A DNA stretch of 64,000 nt from Pascua guehoae (Eukaryota > Basidiomycota > Tremellomycetes > Trichosporonales > Trichosporonaceae): NCBI GenBank assembly GCA_001600415.1, contig BCJX01000009.1, positions 213,088 through 277,087 on the forward strand, given 5' to 3'. Below the pieces are notes generated by a model. That model saw only the letters and a program-made list of their open reading frames with translations. It did no database searches and had not been told where the DNA came from. The position numbers were made by a program, and so were the translations under genes. This document shows, in pieces, positions 7,130-61,818 of the stretch (position 1 is the stretch's first letter; every line of letters begins with the position of its first letter).

Positions 7130-9052
7130 ATGAGCGCCCTCGGAACGGTCCTGCGGAGTGCATCGCGCACGGCGGCACCGCGTGCATCGTCCTCGTATGC
7201 TTCGAGCGAGCTCGCGAGGGCAGCCATGGCCATGTCGCCTGTGATTCGTCTGGGGTCGCGCGGGTACCATACGCGTATGCAGGCGCTCAAGGAGGAGGCC
7301 GACTTAGGCCAGACTGATGCGGTGGGTTGTGATACGTGTAGCGTTCTACCACCACTGTTTGCATTGTGGCGAATGGTTGTATGCAAGGTGCGGAGCTGAC
7401 GGAGACAGGAGTTTGTGCTCTCGATTCTCCAGACGTCGCCATCGGTGCGCGATTCGCGCTCGTATATGGCTTCATTCGCGCCCACACCCGCCGAGAAGGA
7501 CTTGCACCTCCCAGACGCCGAAGTGCCCGCTGTCAAGCCCGCCGAGCCTGATGCGAACCCACTCGTCTCGTCGCTGCTGAACCCAATCATGCGGCGTCCG
7601 GCGCTCGTCAAGATCCAGGGGCCGTTTACGGATGTACAATTGGCGTCGGTTGCGCGAGGCATCAATTCACTCCAAAAGCTGGGGTTAGTGAGCGTTGTCG
7701 TCATTGACCGCGACGACATTCCGCCATTCGAGTCCGAGGACTCGGTTGCGGCCGAGGCACAGCGGACGCTCATGCTGCGTGATGTCGAGCGGACTGTGCA
7801 TTTCCTCACAAAGGGGCGCGCGCCGGCGCGCCCGATTCTGTCGACTGTGGCGCGTCTCAGCCCAGACGGAACAGTCTACGTGGAGGCAGAGGGACTCGAC
7901 CATATCCGCCGCGCAGTGGAAGAGGGCGAGATCCCCGTCCTCATGCCTGTCGCCCTGGACGAGGGATGCCGGTCACGCCGAATCAGCTCAAACGCCGTCC
8001 TCGCAGCACTCGCCGAAGCCATGGCGACATCGTCCAAGACGAGCGAAGGCGAAGGCAACTCTGACCTCACCCCTGGACGGATGGACCTGACCCCCCTGCG
8101 CCTGCTCATCATCAACCGCGAGGGCGGTATTCCATCGTACGCGCGTTCGGGTCTGCCGCACCTCTCGATCAACCTCTCGAGCGAACTTGACTATATCAAC
8201 CGCACCTGGCAGCCTCACTGGCGGCAGACCCACCCCACTGCGCTGTCCAACTTAGCCCTTGCCGACACATGTCTGAGCCACATGCCGCGTACAGCCAGTG
8301 CGCTCTTGGTGTCCCACCGTTCCCCAACGGCCCTGATCGCCAACCTCATCACCAACAAGCCCGCCCATTCAGCCTCATTGCCACACGCATTGCTTACCCA
8401 AAGCGAGGGCCGGATCACGCGTGACACGCCCACCATTATTCGCCGCGGTCTGCCGGTCCGCATCCTGCGCTCGCTCGACGACGTCGACAAGCCAAAGCTC
8501 ACCCAACTCCTCGAACGCTCTTTTAGCCGCAAGCTCAACCAGGACGCATACTGGGCGCGATTAGAGCGCGACCTCGACTTTGTGATTGTCATTGGCGACT
8601 ATGTCGCCGCCGCCGTCGTCACCGTCGAGGGCAAGAGCATGGGCCAGAACATTTGCTACCTCGACAAGTTCGCCGTGCTCCCCAGCAACCAGGGCGACGG
8701 TACAGTCGACTTTTTGTGGGTCGCTCTTCGCGACGAGACGTATGGTCTGGGTCTGCTCGATGCCGCCAACCCAAGCGAGGGCTCGCTCTCGGGTGTCGGT
8801 CGCGGTCGCGACCTCGTGTGGCGTTCGCGTGTCGACAATGGCGTCAACAAGTGGTACTTTGAGCGCAGCAACGGCTTTGTCACGAGCGAGGACGGCAAGT
8901 GGAAGCTGTTCTGGTGCGACGCCGAGCAGCGTCTCCGCGAACTGGCCCAGGAGAACGGAGGCGTCATGCGTGTCGTCGAGCCGACCGAGTTGGGTCGTCT
9001 CGCCGGGTGGGCTCCTGCCATTGAGAGCATCAAGTCGGCATGGTCAGACTAG
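7130..9052 (+). CDS. ARG2: Mitochondrial N-acetylglutamate synthase
   Basis: Transfers acetyl from acetyl-CoA to glutamate, the first step of arginine and ornithine synthesis in mitochondria. Two exons, 7130-7321 and 7409-9052, give 611 residues, close to the fungal NAGS size; the 87-nt intron runs GTGGGT to GACAG in phase 0. The N terminus ([20 protein letters not shown]) is rich in Ser, Ala and Arg without acids, as expected for a mitochondrial presequence. The middle part is a degenerate amino-acid-kinase domain. The C-terminal NAT domain (about residues 410-600) shows [19 protein letters not shown], the block [20 protein letters not shown] and the end pattern [14 protein letters not shown]. 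It converges on argininosuccinate lyase with only 173 bp between the stop codons. The symbol follows yeast usage. Confidence 0.9.
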
Positions 9053-15782: not shown

Positions 15783-20112
<4,330 letters not shown>

Positions 20113-29760: not shown

Positions 29761-32700
29761 ATGGAGACTGTCTCCGAGGCTCGTGCAGACGGAATGAGGA
29801 TCGCCCACCCGACCGACATGTCCCTGCCCGTGCCCGGACCATCAGGCGTTGTTGTCTCGTCCATCTCGACCTCGCCCTCTACTTCTCCTTGGCATGACTG
29901 CCGTCGCCAATCAGACCTGTCGTCTCTTTCTGAACACGATGACGAAGACGAGTCGCGGCCACACTCTTGTAAGTCATCTCTCTCTGTCTCTTCTGTCCTG
30001 TCCATCATTTCACTTGCTTGTCTCGCACCACTGCGCGCACAGACCGCCTCTACTTTTTACAAAGCCACCGACAACAAGCAAAGCCACCAATTCCCACCAA
30101 CCACGTCTTCTCGTCGTGTCTCGTGCTCGTGCTCGTTGCAATCTCCTAACACACCTGTACAGGGGTCAGCGACAACCAGCCGATCCCTTGGGACAACCGA
30201 CAGAATGCGAGTGCAGGTCCTTCTGCATCCCTCTCATCTGTTGCTTGGCGTATGACAAACACCACCACCACATCTTCCCATCACCTCAGTGCCAGCTCGA
30301 TTGCGGATACGGTCCGCATTCACTCCCGATCAGCTTCGATTGTTTCCACTTGTGTGGAAGCAGGTCCTTCATCCCGTTCCCGTGTATCCATGGAAGCCGG
30401 CCCCTCTCGTTCCCGTGTGTCCATGGACGCACTCCCCGCCCCCACCGCCAGCGACGACTCGGGCGCCGCCACGCCCTCGCCATCCTCGAGCACCGCCTCC
30501 CTGCCAGCAATGGAGTATGACAAGCCGCCATCACGCCCCAATGGCATTCCGGCTGCCCGCCAGCCTGTAGGCCCCGTCGGGTTGGGCTTGTCACCGGCCG
30601 TCTTTGCACGACCCCGCTGGACCGAGGTGCAGGACATTGCCAACGAGATCGACTCGGATGGCGAAACGGACAATGACCACCACGAGATGGAGTCGTACAT
30701 GGCGTCGCACCGTGCACCCGTCGACGCCGCCCTGCGCTCCATGCCTGGTGTCGTTGGACTCGGAGATGGCTGGGCAGGCGGTCCGCAACCCAAGCAAAAG
30801 CGGAAATGGTTTTCGCGACCTGGAAAGCCATCCACGCCGACAGAGCAGGACCCCCTGGCGCTGTGGGCACACGGAGAGGGGTCCGCCGCGGAACCGTTGC
30901 AAAATGAGACGAGCCCCAAAAAGTGGCGGTCAAGAATGTTCAGCGCGTCGCAGCGTGTGCTGCCAATGTCGTCGTCGTCGTCGACGACGACGACGACCGC
31001 GGCTGGAGAGTCGTCCAAGACGACCAGTCCACCACCTGCGGTCAGCCGTCGTGGGATTCTCGGGCGTAGCCGTCTCAACTTTGGTTCAATGGTCGACCTG
31101 GGCCGATCTCCTGACAGGAACCGGGAACGAGAAAACAACAACCCTGCCGCAGAGGCCACCACGCCAGTGACCCCTAGTTCATTTACGACCCCTACACCCT
31201 CGAGCGCCGGGACTCCATTGCCGACCAAGCGGCATAGCATGGCGACATTACAGCGCAAGCCACCGCCGCACCCGCTCGAGCTCACTCATGGGTCAAAGGC
31301 CAGTGCGGCCACGCGCTCGCAGCCCGCGGTTCTCACGGCGTCTTCGTCGCAGCCATCGTTTTCTGCGTCGTCGACAGCGTCTCTCCACCCCATTCTTCGC
31401 CAAGCGTATGCCCGTTCCGAGAGCAATCTTGCCGGTACCGCCATGTCGGACGGGACCCGCCCGCGTCCCGCTCCGCTCATCATTGACTCGCGAGCCTTTG
31501 TCAACACGGCACCCATGCCAACCTGGCGTCCGCCGATGATGTCGCCAACGCCATTACTCAACGTGCAGGAGGAGGACGAAGATGACGCTGAGGCAGGGAC
31601 ACCCGAGTCGACTGAGCGCCCGCAGCTCAAGCGCAGTGCGACGTTTGGCGACGAGGAGGAGCTCTCGGAGCGCAAGGCGTCGGCTGCTCCCGTGCTCACT
31701 CCAGTAGCGGCATCGCCACGGGAGACTGAGCGCGCTCTGTCCATTGCGACGACGCCGTCCACCGCCGGCGGCGGCAATGCGAACAGGAACCAGCCCTCGC
31801 CGACCCCGTCGCTTCTTGGTCGGCTCAAGAATGCGCTCACTCGCGGCAAGGGTCGCAGCAGCAGCAAAGTGCACAATGGCAATGGATCGCCACTCGTCCC
31901 TAACTCGCCCCGCAGCTTCCATTCCGAGCAGCAGAGCCTGTCGCCATCTGTACCGTCGTCCAACGGCGCACAGTCCATGGGCCGCGGCATGCGCCCACGA
32001 TCCAAGTTGTTTGGTCGTATGCGCCGCGACGCCGGCGAGTCGACGTTTGACCTTTCAAAGTTAAGGCGCCCTTCGGCCCCAGACGCGCAGCCAGGCCTTC
32101 GCCGCCCTTCGGCCCCGGAGGCACAACACGTCTTGCGGCGCCCTTCGGCTCCAGAGTCCCAGGCGTCGCCGACTCCAGCGCGCAAGGGGTCGCACCCGAT
32201 GCAGCTGGTGCCGCCCCGGCCCCTCAACCCTCCAAAGTCGGCCGACAAGGACGGCTACCGCGTCTCTCGGCATGTCGTCCAGAGCATGATCAACCTGGCT
32301 CCGAGGAGCGAGTCCACGTTTGGGTCAGCGAGCGGACACGACCTCGACCTGCCTAGTGGGTCGATTGGGCGCTCGACACGCCGCTCGTGGGCGCCGACCG
32401 TGCACGACGACGACGACGACATTGCCGACGGCAGCACGCGCGAACGCCGGGGCAGCCGCGTGTCGCTGCGGCGCTTCAAGTCGCCTGCCAAGCAGCGCCC
32501 ATCACTGGGTTCCGTGTTCCCGCGCCCGCCCGAGTCTGTCCAGCAGCCGCCGTCGCTGCACTGGGCCTTCCCTGCGTCTGGCTCGACGCCCGCTCTGTAC
32601 AAGCTGGGCGGGTCGACGCTCTCGCTCGCGCTTGACATTAGCGCCGACGGCAACGAGGTTGCAGGATTACACGACATTGCCGAGTCGCCGCCGCCGACGC

Positions 32701-33560
32701 CGCTCGACCAGACCGGTGGCGACAGCGAGGATGCGCGCGAGCGTGCGCTTGCGTCTACGTTTGCGGCACTCAACGGCAAGCCTGGTGCGCGGTCTCCGCA
32801 TGGTGTACCACACATGGTGCGCCTCCGCGAAGGCGTCGCGTCTACCACGAGTCTCCTGCGTCCCAAGGACAGTGCCAAGGACGACGAGGACCGCGCGACC
32901 GGCGACCGCCGCCACCGTCGCAGCGTGCCGCTCAACCTGCGCAGTGTGCCCATCAACCTGCGCAACCTGACGTCTGCGTCGCGCGACAATCTCGCGTCGT
33001 CGACCGACTCGCTTGGCATGCCCAACATTGTCGACTTTCCGCTCCCGCCCTCGAGCTCGTCGGGCGACGTGTCGTCGCCCGACCCGGACCAGGTCGAGCA
33101 GCTGTGCACGCCGCGCGACGCCGGTCAGTACCCGATCATCCCCGGCGATGCCGACTACTATGCCGGCCGCCTGAGCGACGAGTCCACCTCGGGTGCGAGC
33201 ACTAGCACCCACCCGCCGCTGCACAAGCAGCCCAGCTGGAGCACGTGCAAGACGGCCCTCGCGACGCCGACGTCGGCGACGACGCCCATTGCTATTACGA
33301 CCGACGCCGCGGGTGCAAAGCAGTTTGCACCCCAGCGCCACGGGTCGTTTACGTCGCTCATCACGGCAGAGTCCGTATCCGTCTCGGACGACCACGGGTC
33401 GGACCCCCACGCCGCGCGCACCGCCCCTGTCGCCCCCGCTCACGCACCCACGCACGCGCACAAACATGACGCGCGCGCGTCGGCGACGCAGAGCATTCTC
33501 GCCGCCGCAAAGCGCAGCTCGCTCACCCTCGACCAACAGCCGCGCTCCATTGTGGCTTGA
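29761..33560 (+). CDS. Uncharacterised 1201-residue Ser/Pro-rich protein
   Basis: Function not recognised. Two exons, 29761-29968 and 30163-33560; the 194-nt intron runs GTAAGT to CTGTACAG and joins in phase 1 (HSW-VSDNQPIPWD). The protein is almost wholly low complexity with no membrane segment or enzyme motif. Landmarks: an acidic SLSEHDDEDES patch, a possibly folded block FARPRWTEVQDIANEIDSDG (about 30600-30655), a KQKRKWFSRPGKPS basic segment, two modules of the type NALTRGKGRSSSK and FGRMRRDAGESTFD, and a triple repeat LRRPSAP(D/E) at about residues 705-738. Many RxxS and RRxS sites suggest a kinase-regulated scaffold (cell polarity or signalling), which is inference. The gene sits behind an unusually long upstream region. 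Confidence 0.72.
32062..32160 (+). repeat. Triple LRRPSAP coding repeat
   Basis: Three tandem copies of a 10-12-residue unit (LRRPSAPDAQPG, LRRPSAPEAQHV, LRRPSAPESQAS) inside the Ser/Pro-rich protein. Each copy has an RRxS basophilic kinase consensus, so it could be a phospho-dependent docking array. Confidence 0.85.
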
Positions 33561-40604: not shown

Positions 40605-42360
40605 ATGCGTCTTCGACTTGCCCTCCTCGTCTCTGTGGCGGCTACGGCGGTCCTGGGCCTCCCTCACGACTCTGCCGCGGGCGATTCTCTCGCCTCGCGC
40701 GAGCTTGAACACGACGCACATGCCAAGCACTCTGTAAGTCTCAGCGTCTCCACGCAGCATGCAGTTACAGTTACTGACCTGCCCAGCGCCGCGGGCTGGG
40801 CGAGCTCGGCACCGGCGCGTTCGCCGGCTCGGGCGCCTCGGCGCCCCGCATCACCGCCCTGCAGTACCTGCTGCACGACTGGGGCTACTCTCTCTCCGCC
40901 GACGGCGTATGGGGCCCCGCGACAGCGGGGGCCGTGAGCGCGGTCCAGCCGCGTGTGGGGCTGGCGGCCGACGGGGTCCCGGGTCCGGCCACGCTCGGCG
41001 GGCTCACCAAGGAGGTCACCGAGGGGTCGAGGGGCAACGTCGTGCGCGCTGCGCAGGTTGCGCTCGACGCCGGGCTCGAGGTGGACGGCGTGTTTGGGCC
41101 CGGGACAAGGGCGGCCGCCGAGGCCTTCCAGGCCGGGAAGGGGATCAAGGTCGACGGCATTGTGGGCAGGGATACCTGGACGGCACTGTTTGGGGGGACG
41201 GTCGCGACGACTGAGCAGCCGGGGACCCCGCCGGAGCCCGGGACACAGCCCGAGTCCACTCCGCCCACCACTGAGACGCAGCCCGAGACGCAGCCCACGG
41301 ACCGGCCGCCCAAGACGGCCGAGCCCACCGATCGGCCCCCCAAGACGGTCGAGACGGACCCGGGCACGCCGCGGACCACTCAGGGCCCCGGGACGCCGGC
41401 TGAGGGCACGAGCCCGCTTCCGGCCGCCGAGCAGAACCAGTGGCAGGTGTATGCACACTACGCTGCGTGAGTCTGGGATGTTTCGTTTCGCCGCTTATCC
41501 TATACTAGTGCGGGGACGTGCGCTATCGCCAAGGTCAGAGAGGGCTTCAACTGCGGACAGCACTGCGACTGGCTCAAGGCCCGGGGCGCTCACACCGTCA
41601 AACTGGCGGTAGGCCCGTCTTTGACCATAAGCCATCAGAATGGTATGTCGTCGAGTAGGGGCTTTTTTTTTTAGAATTTTTCTGGCACGTTGGTTGACCC
41701 CAGTGTACGCGGTCGAGACGGGCAGCACGCTCATCATCGTCGTGCAGGGCGCCGTGCCCATCACCTGGCGCAACTACGTGGCGACGGCGCTGGAAAACCC
41801 CACCCTCGTGATGGATGTCGTCAAGGAAGCCAAGGTGCGAAAGGGGCACACCCTCCTCACCAAGACCATTTCGGGAAGCCTGGACCCTGTCGTCCAGGCG
41901 AGCGTCGACGGGGGAATCACCCGCATTGACCTGGTCGGGCACAGCCAGGGCGGGTCCATCGTCGAGCTCCTCGGCGTCAAATACCAGCTGGCCTACCCCG
42001 GCGTGGCCGTCACGGTGCGCCAGTTCAACGCGCCCCAGACCGGCAACGCGGCGTGGGCCGACGTTGTCGACTCGACCTTCCCAACCGGCAGGTTTGCGTA
42101 CGCCGTGCGCATGAACGATAAAACCTCACACGATCCCGGGGGCGAGTACACCCACCCCAAGGGCGAGGTCTTCCTCCCCGTCGGCGCCGCAGAGGACGGA
42201 TGGGTCCAGTGTTCAGGCCGCCAGAACGCAGCGTGCTCAATGGGCGTCACGGAAAACCTCGAGTCGGCCGAGGCCGATGTGTGCGTTTGTCATGTGCATG
42301 GCATCTCTGCTAACGCAAAGCCACTCCGGCCCGTTCTTCGGGGTCACAATGGCGTGCTAG
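40605..42360 (+). CDS. Predicted secreted fusion: two peptidoglycan-binding domains plus class 3 lipase
   Basis: Five exons (40605-40733, 40787-41466, 41509-41642, 41704-42280, 42321-42360), 519 residues, every junction in frame with GT...AG ends. A signal peptide (MRLRLALLVSVAATAVLG) comes first. Residues about 65-117 and 125-179 are two PG_binding_1-type repeats, each with the (V/G)DGV(W/F)GP(A/G)T hallmark (ADGVWGPATAGAV; VDGVFGPGTRAAAEAFQ; VDGIVGRDTWTALFG). A Pro/Thr/Glu linker (180-258) follows, probably O-glycosylated. The rest is a Lipase_3 alpha/beta hydrolase: QWQVYAHYAAAG start, nucleophile elbow VGHSQGGS (Ser395), a plausible Asp453 (RMNDKTSHD) and His508 (EADVHSGPFFG), with paired Cys. 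A TATA-like box precedes it. It probably binds a cell wall or glycan and cleaves an ester; the substrate is unknown. The domain order is unusual for a fungus. Confidence 0.88.
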
Positions 42361-43880: not shown

Positions 43881-46800
43881 TCAACTCCCTCCCCTGCCTC
43901 GACTCTGGCCCGACTTTGACGGCAGCAACTGCCCGACCAAACTGCCCAGCCCCGAAACTGCGCCCGAGACGCTCAGACGTGTTCCATTCCGCTCGTCGTC
44001 ATTGTCCGTCAAAACGTCGGTCAGCATCGCCGGTGACGACATGTGGCTAGGACTTGAGTCTGACACGACGGTCCACGACTCATCCGACGTCGGGCCGCCG
44101 ACGTGCTCCCCGGAAGGGCCTTGCAAATGGGAGCCCGAATGCGTGCGCGAATGCGTGCGCGAGTGCGTACGCGAGTGCGGGTGGGATCGCGAGTGCAGTT
44201 GGATCCGTGAGAGCGTGCGCGAGAGTGTAGGGCTAAGTGGCTCGGACGACGGCGCTGCCTTGATCATGAGTGTGGAGACGCGCTGGCTAAGCCTCTTGTC
44301 GGACGGCGGCGGCTTGATGATTGCGCGGGCATACTCGAGATCCCGGTAAATGTCCTCGATCGCACGCGCAACGCCCTTTTCCTGCAGGTGTCAGCTCGGG
44401 TCCGGTCTCAGCTTGCACCTAACACACCTGGCGGATCGCTGCACCAACAGCCTTGGCCATTGCAATCTGACGCTCATTTGTGGTCGCCTGCACAAGTGCG
44501 TCCGAGAGCTCTTGGACGCTCAGCTTGCGAATCGCAGCACCGACACCAAGGCTCTCCATTCGCTCGGCCCAGAACCACTGGTCCCCAAAGAAAGGCTTGA
44601 TGATGGTTGGAATGCCTGCGCTCAGGCTGGCGCCAGTGGTACCGGCGCCGCCGTGGTGGCATGCGGCGTCGATTCGTGGGAAGAGCCACGAATGGTCGAT
44701 TGCGTCGATGGGGCTGACGTGTTAGACTCGGACGGATGGTCACACTCACTAGATCGAGTCTGGGTATACAATGTCCTCTTCCATGGTCTGGGCCTTGCCG
44801 TCTCGAGTCCCGCGGTCCGACCAGCCCTTTGAAAGAATAGCGTGCACGCCAGATTGCACCACAGACTCGACAACCACGCGCGTCATCTCCTGGGGATCGG
44901 AGACGACAATCGAGCCAAAGCCTCTGAAAATGGTTAGCTCGCACCATCGAGGGTAGTGCGCTTACATGTAAACAACCTTCTTGCCCTTGGCATGCGCATT
45001 GTCGATAAACTCGGCAATGCCAGATGGTGGCGCCCAGTCCTTTTTGCCACTGGCGTTGTCGAGGAACCAATATCCTGATGGGTTAACCCGGTGTGGCCAA
45101 TGTTTCACTCACCCGTGACATGGACCCACTCTGTCCAGTCGATGGGTGGTGGGACAACAGTCGGCGAAAAGTTGTATAGGAACGGCACTGATCGTCAGCA
45201 TTGCTGAGACCACAGAGCCCACCACAACCCACCCTTGTCTTGTTCCAGCTTGGCCAGATTCGTCGCATCCAGCCCAAGTACATTCTTTCGCCACCGGTTG
45301 ATCTGTCCCGAGATGGCGCGCCAGAAGACCTGGTCAAACATGACATAGGTCATGTAATTATAGCTCCCACCGCGGTTGTGCTCGGGAACTGCAAACGCTT
45401 GGGGATAGGCGCGCGTCCTCGTCCACGGCATCTGAATGTCAGCTCTTACTTCTGCAATGTCGACTACGGGAGCTCACCGTGAAGGCGCGATAGTAAGGAA
45501 TGCGCAATGCTTCCGCCACATGGATTCCCGCCATGGCGCTCGGACTCTCGATAAGAAGATCTGCTCCTTGGCAAGCTTCCCATGCAGAGTCGAGAAGATC
45601 GTCAAGCCAGCTCCGGAACTGTGGTGAGCACTGCGATGCATTTGGGTCGACCCACCTTCGTTAAGCCCTCCTTGAGGAATGAAACAGTAAACATGCCATT
45701 GTCGACGCAGAGCTGCATCAGCTCGGCAGGGTCACCACCGACACTGGCAAAGCCGATGCCATGCTGGAAGCGTCAGCTTCAATTCAAAGCACCAATCAAC
45801 AAGGCTCACCCCTTCTACCCATTCCCTATACTCCCCATGTGTTGCGATCGTCGTGGTGTGACCTTCTGCATTCAGACCCTTGCACAGCGCAATGTACGGC
45901 TGTACATCACCACGGCTTCCGATAGTCAGAACAGTAATCTTCATCGGTTCGGGTTTGAAATCGAGAAGGGAACTCGTGGCCGACCCAAACATGGGCGAGG
46001 GAACCGTAGTGGAGGACGGGCTGCGCAGTAGAGGCTCATCAAAGTCCTCGGTGATGCGCGTCTCGTGGAGCTCGTCGTCTTTGGCATTCCGGAGAAACTC
46101 CATCCGCTCCTCCAGTAAAGTCATACACTCGTCCCGCCGCCTGCTTGACGAAAACTCGAGGAACATTTCCTCGTGGCCCTTGATGATGACGATCAGAGCC
46201 GAGTGACCGAACCGGAACGCTTTCTGGGGCTTTACGCCATAGAGATCCCGAATGGGCACAATCATCTGCCAGGTGAGCGTTGCTTGCGATGGTGACAACA
46301 CAACCGACCTTTGTCTTATAAAGCAGGTTTGAAGCGCGGAAACAAAAGTAGTTGGTGGAGATGAAGAAACGGCCATGGACAGGGAGGATGCGATAGAGGT
46401 ACCCGGAAAAGTCTGAATGCTCAGCATTCGCTGTGGGAAGAGGAGCTTACCAGCGAGCAACTGTTCCTTCTCTGGAAGGGCAAACGTGGAGTGGAACTTG
46501 AGCGACGTTTCGTCTTCACCACCCTGTGGAATCACCAAATGGGGTGATTTGGGTGGCAAAAACCTGCCCCAGGACTCGTTGGAACCGGTGGATGACCACG
46601 ACAGCTTGGCTCTCTTGTGGCCCTTTTGGAACGACGGGAGCGAGTCCTGTTCGCTCGTCTCGTCGTCATCGTCAGTCGACAAGGCTGGCTCGACTATCTC
46701 TGTGACGGACGACTGTCGACGAACTTTGCGAGGCGGTGGGCCACGGCGATGCAGCTCGGAAGAACTTGGTGATGACCCAAACAGCTTGGCAGCGGGCTTG

Positions 46801-49277
46801 CGGATCCACGATGGGCCCCAGGTAGTGTGGTCACCCTCCATGCCCGGCGGGGGAGGGCCTGTTTGTCTAGGGGGATAGCGTCCGTCCTCCGAGATGTCCG
46901 AGTCGGCCTCACTGTGCTCGGCGCTCGTATCATTTCCACCGGCAGGAAGTGCGGGTGGAGGAGGGGGCGCGATCGCCACACGTGTGTCTTCACCACCTCG
47001 TTCACCACCAATAAGAGGTCGGAGAACGGAGCTGATCTTGGGAAGAGTGGGCAGATGAAAGTGGGCAGATGAGGGTTCCACATGGGCGTTGATGCCTTCC
47101 TCGGCCTGCAGTGTCGAAGAAGAGGCGACACGAGGAAGATTGGTGCTGGGCCGATCTTTCACGAGCTGCTGGAGCATTGTGAATGCGTAGTCGTTGTCTG
47201 GGAACGACGCAAAGAAGTAGCTGTCGACAGACATTGAATCCTCCGCATCGACCACCTTAATCTGAAGAGGTCAGCGTGGTCCGACTTGAACCCAAACCCA
47301 CCTCGATAGTCTCTGCAAACTCTACAGTCGGACTCCGCTCCACTTCCACGACGGCATCGAGAGGGATAATGAGCTTGACACTCTCTCCCTCATGCTGGGT
47401 CTTGAAGATGACCTTGTTGATGACTCGGATCCACTCGTCGGCATTCGCTTCCGTATCGGCAGTGAATGTGTAGTTGCGTTCAGATGTTCGAAGCTTGAAA
47501 CGCGCCCCGCCCGTCTGTTCGCAACTTGTGGCATACTGGAGAGACACATTGCCCTTGGGGAAGTACGGATCCTGCACAAAGTTAGCGAGCACAGTAAGCA
47601 GGTCCTACCCACCTTGGAGCTCTCGAACCACGACAAGACATCGTTGCGCAGCATGAACCAAAACTTGGTGCTGAGCTTGGTTCGTGACGCCTTCTTCCAA
47701 AGCGGCCCACTCTTGATAACCGCATTCTCGTCTTCGTGTGGGATATGCGCAAAGAAACAGATGTTCTGATGCGTCAAGAACATGTATCCCTGGAGCACTG
47801 CAGAGTAAGCTGGGAGGAAGATATGCCAACAAGAGCCACTCACTGATGCTGTGCAGCAGCCAGCAGTGCATTTCTGCAAGAACCTCCTCCTGGTCCTCGA
47901 GGCCGAAAACCTCCTGCAATCGTTCCGCAAGCTTGCCCATACGAAGGGATCGAGCATGTTCCTCGTTTTGCTCAATAGCTGCTGCCTCGTCTGAGTGCTC
48001 GCGATGTCCCAGAGATAGTTCACTCAGGACCTGTCCTGATGTTGACACTGAGCTTTCCACATCAGTCTTGTGGACTGGCCGAATGGTGGAGGATGACGCA
48101 ACACGAGGAGGAGGTCGAGGGGGGGAAGGAGGCTGGGAAGGCTCTTGGGCAAACTGGTACGCAGTAAAGCCATGAGCTTGCCCACGCCGAGCGAAGGTGT
48201 TCTCCTTGAAGGGAAAGTCGAGTTTGCGGTGTTGATGGGTGAAAAAGCCATCCCGCGACCAGTGACGCGAGGGTGACGAGCTTGGTGCGCGTGGGGATGT
48301 TTCCATCGGCCGGATCGTGGCAAGCGAGGAGTGCAACTGCTGCTCTGAAGAACATGAACATACGATCGCGTCGTAATGGCCGCAACTCACGCTTTGGACG
48401 CCAGGCAGGTAAGATGGTCGTCCTCGACATGCGCTCGTTGACGGTGTCTCCATCCTCGTCATCGCCAGAAGACTCATCACCATCATGTGAAGACTTGTCT
48501 TCGTCGTCGTCGGCGTCCCACGGCAAGTTGGTGAGGGCCGAGACAAGAGCTGACGTTCCCACGCGGATCTGAAAGACATTAGACACGATATCACAAGTCG
48601 CGAAGCACGAATGGAGTGAATAGGTGAAAGCAATGAGCAAGGCAGTTGACGACAAGGAGAGACGGTGGCGACTCTGACCAATTTGATGAGGCGGCACCGC
48701 CACCATCAACCTGGCCACAGCGACCAACAACAGCGTATGCGTGGTGACTCACCGAGCCCATTTCGGCACTGATATCATCCGCCGACCTTGACCGGCCACT
48801 TCCGCTGACACCGGCGGAAGGGCGCAATGTGTCCCGCCGATTCGGACTCGGTGTCAATGTATCCTGCCGCCCTGGCGCCAGCTCCTCGTCGGTGATGGCG
48901 CTGGTAGTGAGCGATCGGCCGCGATGCGTGGTTCCCGAGCACTGTCCACCAGTCGCAGCGGTCCTGAATGTGTGCGATGCTTCGGGCGATGCCACGAACG
49001 TGGTCTGCGCTACAGGCGTGAGCATTGACTGTCGGTCTGAGGTTGCGGGGGATTGTGGAGCGTCCTCCGAAGGTTCTTTGGAGGCTGAGCCTTGGAACGA
49101 AGGTATAGACGTATTGAGCGGCGGTGGAGTAGGCCTGCTTGCGATGCTTGAAGTTGATGAGGCAAGTTGCCCGGCAACGTTCGTGGCGTCGGTCGTCGCG
49201 TCGGCTGCCGGCTCGGACGGCGAGTCCAGCCAAGGGCTCTCCGGAGCCGGTCGTCCAGACCAATGTGGTGCTGCCAT
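43881..49277 (-). CDS. ATG26: UDP-glucose:sterol 3-beta-glucosyltransferase (Atg26/Ugt51)
   Basis: Glucosylates ergosterol at membranes; in some yeasts required for pexophagy. Sixteen exons (49277-48753, 48568-48391, 48344-47844, 47797-47613, 47571-47302, 47261-46451, 46412-46309, 46265-45810, 45763-45656, 45618-45478, 45431-45233, 45187-45113, 45074-44966, 44923-44750, 44713-44428, 44381-43881) give 1540 residues, all in frame. Order: disordered Ser/Pro N terminus; split GRAM/PH region (about 400-520, with [19 protein letters not shown] and a PH end [13 protein letters not shown]); disordered insert; second GRAM (about 795-870, [20 protein letters not shown]); GT-B fold starting [16 protein letters not shown] (about 966); UGT signature [19 protein letters not shown] (about 1299) with the following GDQ. 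The C-terminal tail has His-Ser-Arg-Thr repeats. It is divergent from the second RecQ gene. Confidence 0.95.
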
Positions 49278-56968: not shown

Positions 56969-59900
56969 CTACTGCACCTGCTCCCACTCAGCCTCGAGCC
57001 GCGCAATCTCGCTCAGCCGCCGCGAATCATTGGCGCCCATCATCTGCTGCTTGGACGACTGGCGGAACTGCTCGGCAATGGCGCCAAAGCGCGTCGCGTG
57101 GGGTGTCCCTGCAGAGCTGCCCGAACTCGTGCTCGTACCAGCAGCGTTACCGGTGCCGACGCCCACGGCGGCACCCACGGCGGCGCCCTGGACCTTTGCC
57201 TCTTCGATTTCCTTGTACATTGTGCTGAGGAGATTCGAGTGTCCTGCCATCTGCGCGTCGGCCTCCATTTGGGTGCGGAGGGCGTCTGCACGCGGAATGG
57301 TGCGTGCATACACCTGCTGGCGGCGGTCTGCAAAGGCGACGAGGGCGCGCGTGTCCGCTGGGCTGCTCTGGGTGGCGCACCACATGGCGCGCATGCGGGG
57401 CGACCAGAGCGAGCAGATGCGCCACTTGGGCGAGCGTTCTCCGCGGAGAGGCACGGCGGGCGCGAGGGGCGTGCGGCCTGCAAATGCCGTCCAGCACTCT
57501 GGGCAAATGTACAGGCTGGGCGGGAAGCCGTACCACACTGCGTCTTTGGCGCCCTTGCGGCGCGGGCAGGGTGGTATGGCGCTGAGCGTGCGTACCGTGG
57601 TGGCAAAGGGGCGCCAGACGCACGTGTCGAGCGCCTCGAGCAGGCGGTCAAAGTACATGCCCGCCCGCGCGAGCGACGGGTTCATGTCGCACCCTCGGTG
57701 CAGTGTGTCTGGGGTTCGCCGTTCCCAGAACTGTGCCGCGCCGAGGGGACGCATGATGCCCTCAAAACACCGCTCGCAAATGTCAAAGTCGCACGGTGTC
57801 CCCCGCAGGGTGTAAAACGGCGCGAGCGACCCAGTCGTGCTGCACGGCGGTGCAAACACGATGCGGTTTGCGGCCGTCCACCACAGCCCATAGTCGCCCA
57901 CTGCCAGCGCCGTGTTCATGGCAATGCGCAGCGGCAGCCGCAGGTCGCACGACCACGCTTGCGGCGGCGTCTCCGTCATGCCACCCGTGGGCACAGGGAC
58001 GGGGAAACGCACAAACTCGCCCTCAAAGCGTGTCAGGCCGATATAGTCGAGAAAACACGTCTCGCACACGACCATGCCCTCAATCGAGCGCCGCGGCGTA
58101 TACCACGCGCGCGTCGTCGGGTCCACTATTGCGCCAGTACACTTTGGGACGGCCAGGCATGTCGTGGCCGCCGTGACAAAGTCGTACCACGCATCGCTCC
58201 CAGTGTACGTCTTGCGCATCGCACGCGCAGTGTACGCATGCGCAAAGTCGCACACCCACGTCGTGCCCTCGGGCTGCTGGCCTACAACCAACTCGAATTT
58301 GCCCGCAAACGGGGAAGACAGCACCAGGTCCTCAAAGCACGCCGCGCACGCAACAAAGCCCGGCGGCTTGCCGTCACGCGGCCGGTACCACTGGATGCCG
58401 TCACCCTTGACCGTCCCCTTTAGGCCAGGGCAGTCGGGTGTCGCTTTGCGGTGCATCGCGTACGTGCGCAGCGGCTGGGAGTCGCCCGTCTGCTTGGCCG
58501 TCGGGAGGAGCAGCTTTGTGAACCGCGGTGTGTGGAAGCGACACCGTCCAGATGCAAAGCTCGCCCGCTCAAACATGGGTGCAAGTCGCGTGCCGGCCAC
58601 ATGTCGCTCGTAGCACCGCGTGCACATGAGAAAGTCGGGCAGAGATACCAGGTGGTACCACATTACTGTGTATGTGACCTCGCGGTTTTTGGGGCACGTC
58701 CACACGATCGAGCTCGGAGGGCCATCGACTTTGATGGTGGGCAACTTGTCGATCGGCTCGTCGTCCTGCGGCGCTGGTGGCGTAGAAGATGCTGTGCGCG
58801 AGTGCTGCTGCACACTCACCTGCGCCAGCTGCTGCGTCACATTCGCCATCGACGCGGGCGTGGCAGCGCCATTGCGTGGTGGGAACTGGGAGTGCTGACC
58901 TGGGCTCACCCGCGGGGCTCTGGCCACAGACTCATATGACGGTGGCAGCGTCTCGCCACGACGAGGCGGCATTGGGTGCATTGGACTGGTCGACTGGTTC
59001 GGTAACGACGGCCTGTGACCGTTCGAATAGAGCGAATCAGGTGGGGGAGAGTTTTGCCGTGCTGCAGACGAGCTCGAGGCTGCGCCACTCGCCGCCCAGA
59101 GTCCAGATGGACTAGTCGGTGTGTACGTGTACTTTTCCTGGGGGTAGCTCCACACCGGCGGCCATGGAGATGGGCCACTGGTTCCAGGAGCATTGGACGA
59201 GCTTGGTAAGAACACAGTCTCTTGCTCTGGGGACGACGACATTGGTGGCCGTTGCGTGTGGGTGTTGGTCAGTTGTGCTGATTGCGTACGTTGGTGTGAC
59301 GCCGACCAGCCAGCGCCAGTTGTTTGGGCTGCCAAGGAGCCTGCCGAATACGTTCGCGTGTGTGTGTACGTTTCAGGGGGATATGGTGAAGGACGTCGGG
59401 CATTACCTGGAGTAATAGGTACGCTTGGTACTGGTGACGTCCGCTGATCATGTGGTGATAGCAGTGGCCGGTGAGTTGTGCCACGTGGTGAAGTTGCCGG
59501 GCCATTGCCAGTATTGTTCACAGGAGACGGTGTGGGTGAACAAGGCGAGGCTGGCGCAGGAGACGTGGCTGCACCAGGTGAGGGCGGCAGGAGCCGCGGC
59601 GAGGGTAGGGGCCGAGGGGAGGGGGAGTGGGGCGCTGGGGAGGTACGAGGAGCCGGCGAGTTTGGGCTCTGCGAGACAGGGGTCGCTGGGAGACGGCGAG
59701 CGTGCGGCTGCGGCGACGGCGAGAGGCGTGCCGTGCCACTCACCGAGCCTCGAGAGGTGGCCGAGGTGGGCGTGGTCGGGTGACGGATGTGCGTTGGTGA
59801 GATGGGTGAGCTTGGCTGTGAGCTCGTCGATGCCGAGTGGCCCGTGTGGGTCGGGGAGAGGTGGACGGGCGCAGAGGGTAAGGGGTGTATCGCGGCGGTC

Positions 59901-61123
59901 GGAGAGCGGGGCGGCAACGGTGGCGGATGAGAAGGCAGCGACTGCGTGTCGGTGGTAGGTGAGCGCGGTAGCAGTGACGGCGGACGCACGGCGGCAGATG
60001 CTGTGGGCTGCGACGATGGTGCCGCCGTTGTGTGGGCGAGGGGTGATCCGGGTGCGGATGACGCGCTGAGCGGGCTGAGCGAGTCAGACGCGGCGGACGT
60101 CAATGGCGGTGAGGTAAGGGCCGCGTGAGGTGGGACGTTCAAGTGGTCAGAGGAGGTTGTCACTGGGGGCGAGGTCAGGGGCGGCCGTTGCACAGGCTGC
60201 ACCGTTTGCACGGGCGGCGCTGGCAAGCACGACGGCCACGGCTGCGCCTGCGCCTGCGCCTGCGCCTGCGCCTGCGCCTGCGCCTGCGCCTGCACCGCGG
60301 CCAACATCTGCGAGAGCGGCCGGCGCGGGGGGAGGGACGGGGGCGTCGTCGGCGTCATTGGTGACACGGTCGAGGCCTGGCTGCTGCCCCTCGTGCCCCA
60401 CGGCGTCGTGACTGGCGAGAGGGACGCGGCGGTCGCGGGCGATGTGGCTGCCGACGACAGAGGGGGGCTGGTTTGTGGCGGCAACGGCAGGCGGGGAGGC
60501 ACTGGCGGCCGGCGGAGATCGACATTTGTTTGGTCGTGTGCGCCGCTGCCACCTAGATTAACATTAGGACATGTCGCGTCTGGCGTGTACCGCGGTGGGA
60601 GGGGCGGGGGGCCTATCGAGGACGGCGAAGGGTTGCGCGGGGGCAGAGGCGGGCCTCCAGTGTGCGACAGGGACAGCGACTGTCGGGAATGGTGGCCGAG
60701 GTGAGGAGCGGCGTGGAATGCCCCGGGGGACATTGTCGAGTGAGGCGACGAGTGAGTTGGCGTGTGAGGCGGCGAGGCAAATGGTGGGGGAGGCGGGTAG
60801 TTGTACGGGCCAGCACTTGCGCCGCCAGTACCTGGCGCCGGGTGTCGGTACGGAGGTGCAGCTCCGGGAGGTAGCCCAGGTCCACCACTAGGCCTCGATG
60901 CATGGTCGGGTGCGTCCCCTCCCATCGCTTGCCCCGTGGTCGCCGGGCTGCCCCACCATGTGTGTGGTGAATGACCGTTTCCATACCCAGAAGCTGAAGT
61001 GTTGTGGGTACGTCCGTGGCCGTCTTGGCCGGTCCAGTTGCCGCCGTCCCAGCCGCTGCCAGAGCCCGTGCCGCCGCCGGCCCAGCCAGGCGGTGGGCCG
61101 TGTTCGTGGTATGGGCTTCCCAT
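56969..61123 (-). CDS. 1384-residue protein: low-complexity N terminus plus five CxxC modules
   Basis: A single exon, unusual in this window. Residues 1-790 are Pro/Ser/Thr/Gly-rich and disordered, with a Gln-Ala dipeptide run. The C-terminal 560 residues are ordered and contain five modules spaced about 90-97 residues apart, each with a CxxC followed by an aromatic residue: CTRCYERHV, CAACFEDLV, CETCFLDYI, CERCFEGIM and CPECWTAFA (about residues 835, 924, 1021, 1116, 1207). Each is followed 20-35 residues later by a further Cys block (CRFH, CDFA, CDLR, CDMN, CSLW). This fits repeated zinc-binding or disulfide modules. I recall similar Cys-rich proteins in filamentous fungi labelled only as integral membrane proteins, yet no membrane helix is visible here. 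A coiled-coil-like tail (SRRLSEIARLEAEWEQ) ends it. Function unknown. Confidence 0.85.
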   Translation of the reverse strand: MGSPYHEHGPPPGWAGGGTGSGSGWDGGNWTGQDGHGRTHNTSASGYGNGHSPHTWWGSPATTGQAMGGDAPDHASRPSGGPGLPPGAAPPYRHPAPGTGGASAGPYNYPPPPPFASPPHTPTHSSPHSTMSPGAFHAAPHLGHHSRQSLSLSHTGGPPLPPRNPSPSSIGPPPLPPRYTPDATCPNVNLGGSGAHDQTNVDLRRPPVPPRLPLPPQTSPPLSSAATSPATAASLSPVTTPWGTRGSSQASTVSPMTPTTPPSLPPRRPLSQMLAAVQAQAQAQAQAQAQAQAQPWPSCLPAPPVQTVQPVQRPPLTSPPVTTSSDHLNVPPHAALTSPPLTSAASDSLSPLSASSAPGSPLAHTTAAPSSQPTASAAVRPPSLLPRSPTTDTQSLPSHPPPLPPRSPTAAIHPLPSAPVHLSPTHTGHSASTSSQPSSPISPTHIRHPTTPTSATSRGSVSGTARLSPSPQPHARRLPATPVSQSPNSPAPRTSPAPHSPSPRPLPSPRLLPPSPGAATSPAPASPCSPTPSPVNNTGNGPATSPRGTTHRPLLSPHDQRTSPVPSVPITPGNARRPSPYPPETYTHTRTYSAGSLAAQTTGAGWSASHQRTQSAQLTNTHTQRPPMSSSPEQETVFLPSSSNAPGTSGPSPWPPVWSYPQEKYTYTPTSPSGLWAASGAASSSSAARQNSPPPDSLYSNGHRPSLPNQSTSPMHPMPPRRGETLPPSYESVARAPRVSPGQHSQFPPRNGAATPASMANVTQQLAQVSVQQHSRTASSTPPAPQDDEPIDKLPTIKVDGPPSSIVWTCPKNREVTYTVMWYHLVSLPDFLMCTRCYERHVAGTRLAPMFERASFASGRCRFHTPRFTKLLLPTAKQTGDSQPLRTYAMHRKATPDCPGLKGTVKGDGIQWYRPRDGKPPGFVACAACFEDLVLSSPFAGKFELVVGQQPEGTTWVCDFAHAYTARAMRKTYTGSDAWYDFVTAATTCLAVPKCTGAIVDPTTRAWYTPRRSIEGMVVCETCFLDYIGLTRFEGEFVRFPVPVPTGGMTETPPQAWSCDLRLPLRIAMNTALAVGDYGLWWTAANRIVFAPPCSTTGSLAPFYTLRGTPCDFDICERCFEGIMRPLGAAQFWERRTPDTLHRGCDMNPSLARAGMYFDRLLEALDTCVWRPFATTVRTLSAIPPCPRRKGAKDAVWYGFPPSLYICPECWTAFAGRTPLAPAVPLRGERSPKWRICSLWSPRMRAMWCATQSSPADTRALVAFADRRQQVYARTIPRADALRTQMEADAQMAGHSNLLSTMYKEIEEAKVQGAAVGAAVGVGTGNAAGTSTSSGSSAGTPHATRFGAIAEQFRQSSKQQMMGANDSRRLSEIARLEAEWEQVQ
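60243..60294 (+). repeat. Hexanucleotide microsatellite encoding Gln-Ala
   Basis: About eight perfect copies of GCGCCT on the plus strand; on the coding minus strand it gives alternating Gln-Ala. It is inside the disordered half of the CxxC protein. Confidence 0.92.
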
Positions 61124-61818
61124 TCTGGCCCGTGGTGAACCGAGGGCGATGCCGTGCTCTGAGCGTAGATCTGGGATGAATGGATATACAAGGAAAAGAA
61201 CGAGGACGAGGACGACTATCGGTTGAGATTGATCGGGATTCTTTGTAAAAGTAGTGGGACAGAGCGTCCGCGTTTTGCGTCATTCCTTGGCCTGCCTCAG
61301 GAACCCGGCATGCAATCCATCCATCCATCAAGACATCAATCAATCCGCAGGGCCGCAGGGCCGCAGGGGCCCCCACAAGCAAAGCGGGGGGCAGGCGCGT
61401 CTGGGCGCTGGGCGGCTCTTGGGGCTAAGATTAGAGGGGGCAAGTAGAGCAAGCAGGCGACAAGCATCCAAACTACCATGCATGCATAATGTCAGAGCCT
61501 AGAGCCCTCACTACTTGTGACACTGCCTTGCCGTCGATCACATACCTGCACTAGTGCTCTAAAACTCTACTGGTTGCATGTTTGTGTGTGTTTTGCTGTG
61601 CAAAAAGCCGCGCTACAAAGTACTGTTGGGCGTTTGTGGATCGTCTTTGATCGACGGGATCGACAGGGCCATCACATGCCGCGCCGGACATATAGCCACC
61701 ACTGCTTTTGGACCAAGGCGGTGTTAGTGGCGTCCATTATTGACTAACCACAAGCATTTACACCGCACAGCATGGCATAGATGGCTGTGTTGCTTATGTC
61801 ACCCAAGAACGTCAGGTA

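What the first reader, a model, noticed from the sequence alone, without database searches (positions are those of the whole stretch)
40605..42360. Fungal secreted enzyme joining two bacterial-type peptidoglycan-binding repeats to a class 3 lipase
The sequence shows, across four in-frame introns, a signal peptide, two PG_binding_1-type repeats, a Pro/Thr linker and a lipase_3 domain with a complete Ser-Asp-His candidate triad. PG_binding_1 repeats are typical of bacterial wall hydrolases; their fusion to a eukaryotic-type secreted lipase is unexpected. It could anchor an esterase to bacterial or fungal walls, for competition with bacteria or for wall lipid/ester removal. The introns show that it is a true fungal gene and not contamination. 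Possible origin: a bacterial domain captured by a resident lipase gene.
Basis: partly seen in the sequence, partly recalled or inferred. Interest (0 to 1): 0.88.

Follow-up and report, generated by a model that had tools for sequence, protein, structure and literature searches.

The report
Fungal lipase with bacterial wall-binding tag
A yeast-like fungus carries a secreted lipase joined to a double bacterial cell-wall-binding module, and two other genes in the same genome carry that same kind of module in front of a wall peptidase and a phospholipase-like part, which points to a borrowed bacterial targeting tag that the fungus put onto several secreted enzymes, probably against bacteria.

Summary
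Window 40605-42360 holds a five-exon gene for a 519-residue protein: signal-like peptide, two PG_binding_1 repeats (85 bits, cut-off 23), Pro/Thr linker, class 3 lipase domain (25.8 bits, cut-off 22; triad S395/D453/H508). Repeats, linker and the first lipase helix lie in one exon, so the fusion does not hang on a splice guess. The same architecture occurs in four named Trichosporonaceae (three Cutaneotrichosporon, one Vanrija).

New point: the genome has three genes with PG_binding_1, each with a different catalytic part: this lipase, a VanY D-Ala-D-Ala peptidase, and a phospholipase A2-like part whose pieces lie in different frames. The fungal modules group together (99/96 in one tree, 87/68 in a second), near actinobacterial PGBD-VanY proteins. 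Best reading: a bacterial PGBD-VanY gene was acquired and its binding module was then moved onto resident secreted lipolytic enzymes, giving wall-targeted enzymes that act on bacterial envelopes, as phage LysB does. Binding, activity and antibacterial effect are inferred, not shown. Caveat: Ala331 stands where three of the four aligned relatives have Ser/Thr (the fourth has a gap) at the oxyanion position.

The parts
40605..40733 (+). exon 1: start codon, signal-like peptide (about residues 1-19) and first part of a propeptide
   Evidence: signal peptide judged by eye (hydrophobic MRLRLALLVSVAATAVLG), no predictor run
40734..40786 (+). intron 1, 53 nt, GT-AG, phase 0
40787..41466 (+). exon 2: dibasic RR (residues 44-45), both PG_binding_1 repeats, Pro/Thr linker and the first helix of the lipase domain in one unspliced frame
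40841..40996 (+). PG_binding_1 repeat 1 (residues 62-113)
   Evidence: predicted helices, block pLDDT 97-98
41075..41188 (+). PG_binding_1 repeat 2, matched part (profile 20-57)
   Evidence: predicted helices, block pLDDT 95-98
41198..41422 (+). linker, residues 181-255, 40 of 75 residues Pro or Thr
41467..41508 (+). intron 2, 42 nt, GT-AG, phase 2; two metagenome frames (P0219, P0228) end close to the same point of the protein
41509..41642 (+). exon 3: Cys-containing N-terminal part of the lipase domain
41643..41703 (+). intron 3, 61 nt, GT-AG, phase 1
41704..42280 (+). exon 4: lipase core
41751..41753 (+). Ala331 at the oxyanion-hole position (Thr in P0001, Ser in P0221 and P0223, gap in P0222)
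   Evidence: role of the position recalled from class 3 lipases
41943..41945 (+). Ser395, nucleophile of G-H-S-Q-G
42117..42119 (+). Asp453, acid of the triad
42281..42320 (+). intron 4, 40 nt, GT-AG, phase 2
42321..42360 (+). exon 5: His508 (42322-42324) in H-x-G-P-F/Y, last Cys, stop codon; a like ending is seen in frames of unfused lipases of this genome

Best explanation
A secreted, wall-targeted lipolytic enzyme of a Trichosporonales-like basidiomycete, one of a small family built on a borrowed tag. Shown by sequence: two PG_binding_1 repeats fused to a class 3 lipase behind a signal-like peptide; the same double module in two other genes of the genome, in front of a VanY (M15B-type) D-Ala-D-Ala peptidase domain and of a PLA2-like part. 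Supported by trees: the fungal modules probably share one origin close to actinobacterial PGBD-VanY proteins, and the lipase- and PLA2-borne modules are one derived group. Inferred: after export and removal of a short propeptide the repeats bind bacterial peptidoglycan, and the long Pro/Thr linker lets the lipase reach ester-bonded envelope lipids (phospholipid, lipoteichoic-acid anchor or mycolate-type esters), damaging or digesting bacteria, while the VanY sister cuts the peptide part of the wall and four GH24 lysozymes of the same genome cut the glycan.
For: PF01471 gives 6 matches in 3 genes of the 33.6-Mb genome; their catalytic parts are Lipase_3, VanY 51.8 bits against a cut-off of 25, and a PLA2G12 piece at 26 bits, below its cut-off of 34. 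PGBD tree, 71 rows, midpoint-rooted: 11 fungal or fungal-like rows one clade 99/96, in a 22-row set (96/87) whose other 11 rows all carry VanY (2 of these 11 have organism names: Propionibacteriaceae, Nakamurella); the 7 lipase- or PLA2-type rows 100/98. Best bacterial genome match to the VanY sister: Propionibacteriales MAG 58%, then Agromyces terreus 51%. H240, D247, E278 and H281 of VanY are invariant in 10 of 10 aligned rows. Same PGBD-lipase architecture in P0001/P0002, P0221, P0222, P0223. Window repeats model at block pLDDT 95-98; the first eight Foldseek rows are bacterial or phage wall proteins, though only one has E under 0.001. The lipase domain groups with the other fused lipases and next with an unfused own lipase on C13 (unstarred). 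GH24 in 4 places. A peptidoglycan-binding part on an esterase is documented for mycobacteriophage Ms6 LysB (PMC8309991, abstract).
Against: No binding, activity or expression data. PG_binding_1 need not bind peptidoglycan in eukaryotes (recalled: related folds in matrix metalloproteinase prodomains). Lipase_3 score is low (25.8 bits) and Ala replaces Ser/Thr at the oxyanion position in the window copy. In a second PGBD tree of 92 rows, without the three unassigned metagenome rows and with more bacteria, one fungal clade is still the best tree but only at 87/68, and the VanY-borne module of C1 is there about as near to some bacterial rows as to the fungal ones (paths 0.69-0.76). In the VanY tree with fragmentary outgroups the 4 fungal or fungal-like rows did not group in the free tree (one clade not rejected, p-AU 0.61); without those fragments they group at 84/94, or 97/96 without P0111. 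The PLA2-type gene may be non-functional.
Confidence: 0.6

Rival explanations
1. Scavenging rather than warfare: the enzymes digest dead bacteria as food; the tag holds lipase, peptidase and phospholipase on bacterial debris.
For: The same anatomy would serve. The set of likely targets (glycan by GH24, peptide by VanY, lipid by lipase and PLA2-like) covers an envelope.
Against: Nothing in sequence separates it from killing. The two are not exclusive.
Confidence: 0.22
2. The module has been re-used to hold a general secreted lipase on the fungus's own wall or on another GlcNAc polymer, with no bacterial target.
For: Fungal walls hold chitin, a GlcNAc polymer. PG_binding_1-like folds occur in eukaryotic proteins without a peptidoglycan role (recalled). 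The lipase- and PLA2-borne modules are a distinct derived group (100/98).
Against: The sister protein is a D-Ala-D-Ala peptidase, for a bond that fungal walls lack (recalled). The repeat core is conserved over species.
Confidence: 0.11
3. The lipase domain of this copy is catalytically weak or dead and the protein works as a wall-binding lectin or decoy.
For: Ala331 in place of Ser/Thr, Lipase_3 only 25.8 bits, long branch leading to window plus P0001 in the lipase tree (3.06).
Against: Ser, Asp and His are all kept and the C-terminal His exon is intact. Three of four aligned relatives keep Ser/Thr at the oxyanion position; the fourth has a gap there.
Confidence: 0.08
4. Two neighbouring genes or bacterial contamination read as one.
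For: All models, here and in databases, are predictions without RNA seen by me. GC3 of the exons is higher than in four other frames of the window (0.564-0.755).
Against: Exon 2 alone holds the repeats, the linker and the first lipase helix. Five records of four other species show one protein. Introns, 1.33-Mb contig, GC3 like the neighbouring P450 (0.894 and 0.869 against 0.872).
Confidence: 0.02

Closest known systems
Generic-named Trichosporonaceae proteins: C. oleaginosum alpha/beta-hydrolase (P0001, P0002), C. spelunceum CspeluHIS016_0403760 (P0221), C. cavernicola CcaverHIS002_0606310 (P0223), Vanrija pseudolonga 'putative feruloyl esterase A' (P0222)
   Same: Same order of parts: N-terminal signal-like stretch, two PG_binding_1, Pro-rich linker, Lipase_3; P0001, P0221, P0222 and P0223 are 34-49% identical to the window protein in alignment A1 (P0002 not in it).
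   Different: P0221-P0223 have a higher-scoring lipase domain (60.6-88.6 bits), with Ser at the oxyanion position in P0221 and P0223; P0001's model seems to lack the last exon.
Actinobacterial PGBD-VanY peptidases (Propionibacteriaceae P0112, Agromyces terreus P0117, Propionibacteriales MAG L028)
   Same: Near relatives of the repeats, and of the whole VanY sister gene on C1 (51-58% identical).
   Different: Catalytic domain is a zinc peptidase, not a lipase.
Mycobacteriophage LysB (Ms6)
   Same: Works alike: an N-terminal peptidoglycan-binding region on a protein that detaches the mycobacterial outer membrane; binding to peptidoglycan shown experimentally (PMC8309991, abstract and outline seen). 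That it is a serine esterase is recalled.
   Different: Phage lysis protein of another esterase family (recalled); the window protein's Pfam scan found Lipase_3 and no LysB/cutinase family.
X-Tfe effectors of bacteria-killing type IV secretion systems
   Same: A cocktail of peptidoglycan hydrolases, peptidases and lipases, mostly predicted; the domain list of its figure includes PF01471 and PF01764 (PMC6536674, section 13 read). Whether both occur in one effector was not seen.
   Different: Injected by bacteria through a C-terminal XVIPCD signal; here export by a signal-like peptide in a fungus.
Zn DD-peptidase 1LBU and phage endolysins with PGBD (5NM7, 7RUM)
   Same: Sequence and fold match to the repeats.
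   Different: Other catalytic domains.

Membership tests
PG_binding_1 (PF01471) | profile score over the curated cut-off | tested here: met
   85 bits against 23, two stretches
PG_binding_1 (PF01471) | three-helix bundle fold per repeat | tested here: met
   six helices in the repeat region, block pLDDT 95-98; SleB N-terminal domain 6tci aligned at rmsd 1.0, TM by target 0.79, E 3.5e-3
PG_binding_1 (PF01471) | binding to peptidoglycan | not testable with these tools
   needs a pull-down with sacculi
Lipase_3 (PF01764) | profile score over the curated cut-off | tested here: met
   25.8 bits against 22; relatives 47.8-88.6
Lipase_3 (PF01764) | Ser-Asp-His triad, G-x-S-x-G | tested here: met
   S395, D453, H508 by alignment; geometry not checked
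Lipase_3 (PF01764) | Ser/Thr at the oxyanion-hole position (recalled feature) | tested here: not met
   Ala331 in the window; T, S, S in P0001, P0221, P0223; gap in P0222
Lipase_3 (PF01764) | class 3 lipase fold | tested here: inconclusive
   model of P0221 has mean pLDDT 44.4; Foldseek ranks fungal class 3 lipases and feruloyl esterases first. The window's own lipase domain was not folded
VanY/M15B peptidase (sister gene on C1) | profile over cut-off and zinc motif H-x6-D ... E-x-W-H (motif recalled) | tested here: met
   51.8 bits against 25; H240, D247, E278, H281 invariant in 10 of 10 rows
PLA2G12 (gene on C17) | profile over cut-off in one open frame | tested here: not met
   26.0 bits against 34 for the H-D piece, 25.2 in the genome search; the preceding piece is in another frame
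Mycobacteriophage LysB | LysB/cutinase-type esterase domain (recalled feature) | tested here: not met
   three Pfam families matched at E up to 0.1, none of that type
X-Tfe effectors | C-terminal XVIPCD secretion domain | not tested
   no profile for it was searched; the protein ends 11 residues after the catalytic His

The most novel reading that the evidence does not exclude
After one transfer of an actinobacterial PGBD-VanY gene into an ancestor of these fungi, the double PGBD became a portable peptidoglycan address tag within a eukaryote. It was put onto a resident class 3 lipase and a resident secreted phospholipase A2, giving a eukaryotic counterpart of LysB and of bacterial interbacterial effector sets: wall-anchored enzymes that strip lipids from living bacteria.
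Probability: 0.42. Interest if true: 0.8.

Novelty: new variant of a known kind. Interest (0 to 1): 0.64.

Why it matters
A 2015 review of fungal defence proteins has sections on defensins, GH24/GH25 lysozymes and cerato-platanins against bacteria, and no word beginning with 'lipase' in its main text (PMC6272156, passages only). A family in which one acquired bacterial binding module sits on three different catalytic parts would show domain capture and shuffling making new envelope-targeted enzymes in a eukaryote. It makes a test direct: express the repeats and the enzymes, and ask what they bind and cut. It could also give lipases with a ready-made bacterial address for use against biofilms.

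Tried and rejected
Two adjacent genes or contamination: rejected (exon 2 spans the joint; introns; relatives with the same architecture). Chance domain hits: rejected by E-values and by conservation in relatives. Phage donor of the repeats: not favoured; 93 of 50,697 phage records match, all under 60% identity, at most 44% in the 20 rows listed. Other wall-hydrolase families in the genome: NLPC_P60, GH25, Amidase_2 and M23 each 0 matches; LysM 1; GH24 4. No Rfam match at gathering score and no tRNA in the window. The whole-chain model of P0221 with 5 sequences was poor (mean pLDDT 44.4), so triad geometry could not be checked in space. The lipase tree has 11 rows, two of which (L010, L012) were cut from open frames that may run into introns, and a very long outgroup; its grouping of the 5 fused lipases (87/93) is only suggestive. 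In one search I marked P0101, P0102 and P0219 (metagenome, no organism given) as fungal after seeing their sequences; one search repeats the tree without them and is weaker (87/68). P0002 was dropped from both PGBD trees and the lipase tree as a second record of the P0001 protein. In one search, 71 of the 149 extracted modules were used (the 72 best-scoring less P0002), 92 rows.

Papers: the ten searches gave no listed title or abstract start that describes this architecture in fungi; one search listed 20 of 23 papers and one search listed 12 of 33. Beyond listings I saw only the abstract and outline of PMC8309991, passages and section 13 of PMC6536674, and passages of PMC6272156. Most subscription papers and all bioRxiv preprints are outside that library. 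Protein searches were truncated (only 7998 and 7991 candidates scored; 120 of 711 and 120 of 427 hits listed), so absence from other fungi is not shown.

Full report
What is there. The gene at 40605-42360 (+) splices into one 519-residue frame through four short GT-AG introns (53, 42, 61, 40 nt). Pfam finds PG_binding_1 twice (85 bits in all, cut-off 23), PG_binding_3 (32.4, cut-off 24.6) and Lipase_3 (25.8, cut-off 22). The protein begins with a hydrophobic signal-like stretch (by eye), has a dibasic RR at 44-45, a 75-residue linker with 20 Pro and 20 Thr, and the triad S395, D453, H508. Exon 2 by itself encodes both repeats, the linker and a helix that starts the lipase domain (helix 213-225 of the exon product); several solved fungal lipases align from that stretch onwards. 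The fusion therefore does not rest on a splice junction. His508 is in the last 40-nt exon; frames of unfused lipases of the same genome end in a like H-x-G-P-F/Y motif, which supports that exon.

Surroundings. The window is bases 213088-277087 of contig C9 (1.33 Mb) of a 33.6-Mb, 28-contig genome. Neighbouring open frames look like ordinary fungal genes: a P450 (37573-38646), a sterol-glucosyltransferase-like gene on the minus strand (45735-47270 with GRAM and Glyco_transf_28 over cut-off; 47325-48023 with a PH match under its cut-off), a frame with the NAT domain of N-acetylglutamate synthase (7400-9049) and a helicase frame (17696-18349). GC3 of the gene's two large exons (0.894, 0.869) is like that of the P450 (0.872) and higher than in four other frames (0.564-0.755).

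Relatives. Of 100 proteins found with the whole protein, 2 have Lipase_3, both C. oleaginosum (P0001, P0002); the others are listed with PG_binding domains and no Lipase_3. A search with the repeats of the C17 gene listed 120 of 427 hits; 5 have Lipase_3 (P0001, P0002, P0221, P0222, P0223), from four species of Cutaneotrichosporon and Vanrija. Two metagenome frames, P0219 and P0228, end shortly after the start of the lipase domain, near the window's intron 2, as single exons of such a gene would. In the alignment of five proteins, window included, S395 and D453 are the same in all and H508 is present in four. At the oxyanion position the window has Ala where P0001 has Thr and P0221 and P0223 have Ser; P0222 has a gap. 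That substitution, with the low Lipase_3 score, is the main reason to doubt full activity of this copy.

A family with one tag. PF01471 gives 6 matches in three genes of this genome. The second, at C1:122396-123202, has one predicted intron and encodes the repeats followed by a VanY D-Ala-D-Ala carboxypeptidase domain (51.8 bits, cut-off 25); VanY has one match in the genome. Its H240, D247, E278 and H281 are invariant in 10 of 10 aligned rows. Trichosporon asahii has a relative (P0111, 52% identical; Pfam). The third, on C17:663471-664378 (minus strand), has the repeats, a Gly-rich linker with a masked stretch, and a PLA2-like part; the H-D piece scores 26.0 bits with PLA2G12, under its cut-off of 34, and the piece before it lies in another frame. 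Two other PLA2G12 matches, not near any PF01471 match, exist on C22 and C9.

Origin. In a midpoint-rooted tree of 71 double modules, 11 fungal or fungal-like rows form one clade (99/96), joined to 11 rows that carry VanY (22 rows, 96/87); within the fungal clade, the 7 lipase- or PLA2-type modules are one group (100/98), the window module is sister to that of C. oleaginosum, and the C17 PLA2-type module comes next (99/87). Without three unassigned metagenome rows and with more bacteria (92 rows) the fungal rows are still together, but at 87/68. In full-length VanY trees the four fungal or fungal-like rows were not together when fragmentary outgroups were included (one clade not rejected, p-AU 0.61), and were together at 84/94, or 97/96 without T. 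asahii, when these were left out. The best bacterial genome match is a Propionibacteriales MAG at 58%, then Agromyces terreus at 51%; these two of the 80 listed loci (of 178 relatives) match nearly the whole query, the others the VanY part. The lipase domains of the five fused proteins fall together (87/93), nearest to an unfused lipase of this genome on C13 (91/89; 11 rows, long branches). The simplest history is therefore: a PGBD-VanY gene came from an actinobacterium, and its module was then joined to resident lipolytic enzymes. One transfer is likely, not proven.

How it most likely works. Inferred: the repeats hold the enzyme on peptidoglycan and the lipase cuts ester lipids of the envelope. 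The repeats model as six helices with block pLDDT 95-98. Of 39 fold matches in the PDB, one has E under 0.001; the first eight rows are bacterial or phage wall proteins, and the protease CtpB follows. The presence of a D-Ala-D-Ala peptidase with the same tag argues for a bacterial target, since fungal walls have no such bond (recalled). The genome also has four GH24 lysozyme matches, whose frames show an SH3-like or related N-terminal stretch by eye (no profile run), and no NLPC_P60, GH25, Amidase_2 or M23 match. Ms6 LysB is a case in which binding to peptidoglycan by the N-terminal part of an envelope-detaching protein was shown (abstract). X-Tfes are a set of mostly predicted wall and lipid enzymes, two of them shown to lyse peptidoglycan, used by bacteria against bacteria (section 13). 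Killing and scavenging cannot be told apart from sequence.

Novelty. The parts are known families; the joining of a double PGBD to a class 3 lipase exists in database records of four species, but I saw no paper describing it in the listings of the ten searches made. The shared tag on three catalytic types in one fungal genome is the new element. I rate it a new variant of a known kind.

Noticed in passing
own genome G000:C1:122396-123202 (L002, L007, L020): Gene with a predicted intron, two PG_binding_1 repeats and a VanY D-Ala-D-Ala carboxypeptidase domain, 58% identical to a Propionibacteriales MAG protein: a good case of gene transfer from Actinomycetota.
   Followed up: yes
own genome G000:C17:663471-664378, minus strand (L001, L008): Double PGBD plus Gly-rich linker plus PLA2-like pieces that lie in different frames; 88 masked bases in the linker. 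Possibly decayed or mis-sequenced.
   Followed up: partly
own genome G000:C7:860633, C6:1081716, C6:1050476, C4:2089665 (L108-L111): Four GH24 (phage-type) lysozyme matches; the frames show an SH3-like N-terminal stretch by eye, and one has a long Gly/Asn-rich linker with masked bases.
   Followed up: partly
own genome G000:C9:209512-209880 (L022, L024), 3.2 kb left of the window: Group XII-like PLA2 without PGBD, with a C-C-x-x-H-D-R-C-Y motif; one in-frame TAA in the six-frame match.
   Followed up: no
own genome G000:C19 lipase (L012): A class 3 lipase frame with a long acidic, Pro/Ser-rich N-terminal part (about 250 residues, by eye).
   Followed up: no
P0001, P0002 (C. oleaginosum): Database gene models seem to lack the last exon with the catalytic His; P0002 lacks a further internal stretch.
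   Followed up: partly
P0222 (Vanrija pseudolonga): Named 'putative feruloyl esterase A' although it carries two peptidoglycan-binding repeats; its model lacks the strand with the oxyanion residue.
   Followed up: partly
window 30150-33557 (+) and 56972-61279 (-): Open frames of 1136 and 1436 codons without a Pfam match.
   Followed up: no
P0151 (jgi metagenome): Protein joining a Het-C-like domain (PF07217) to PG_binding_1 and VanY; the source's name for it includes 'heterokaryon incompatibility protein Het-C'.
   Followed up: no
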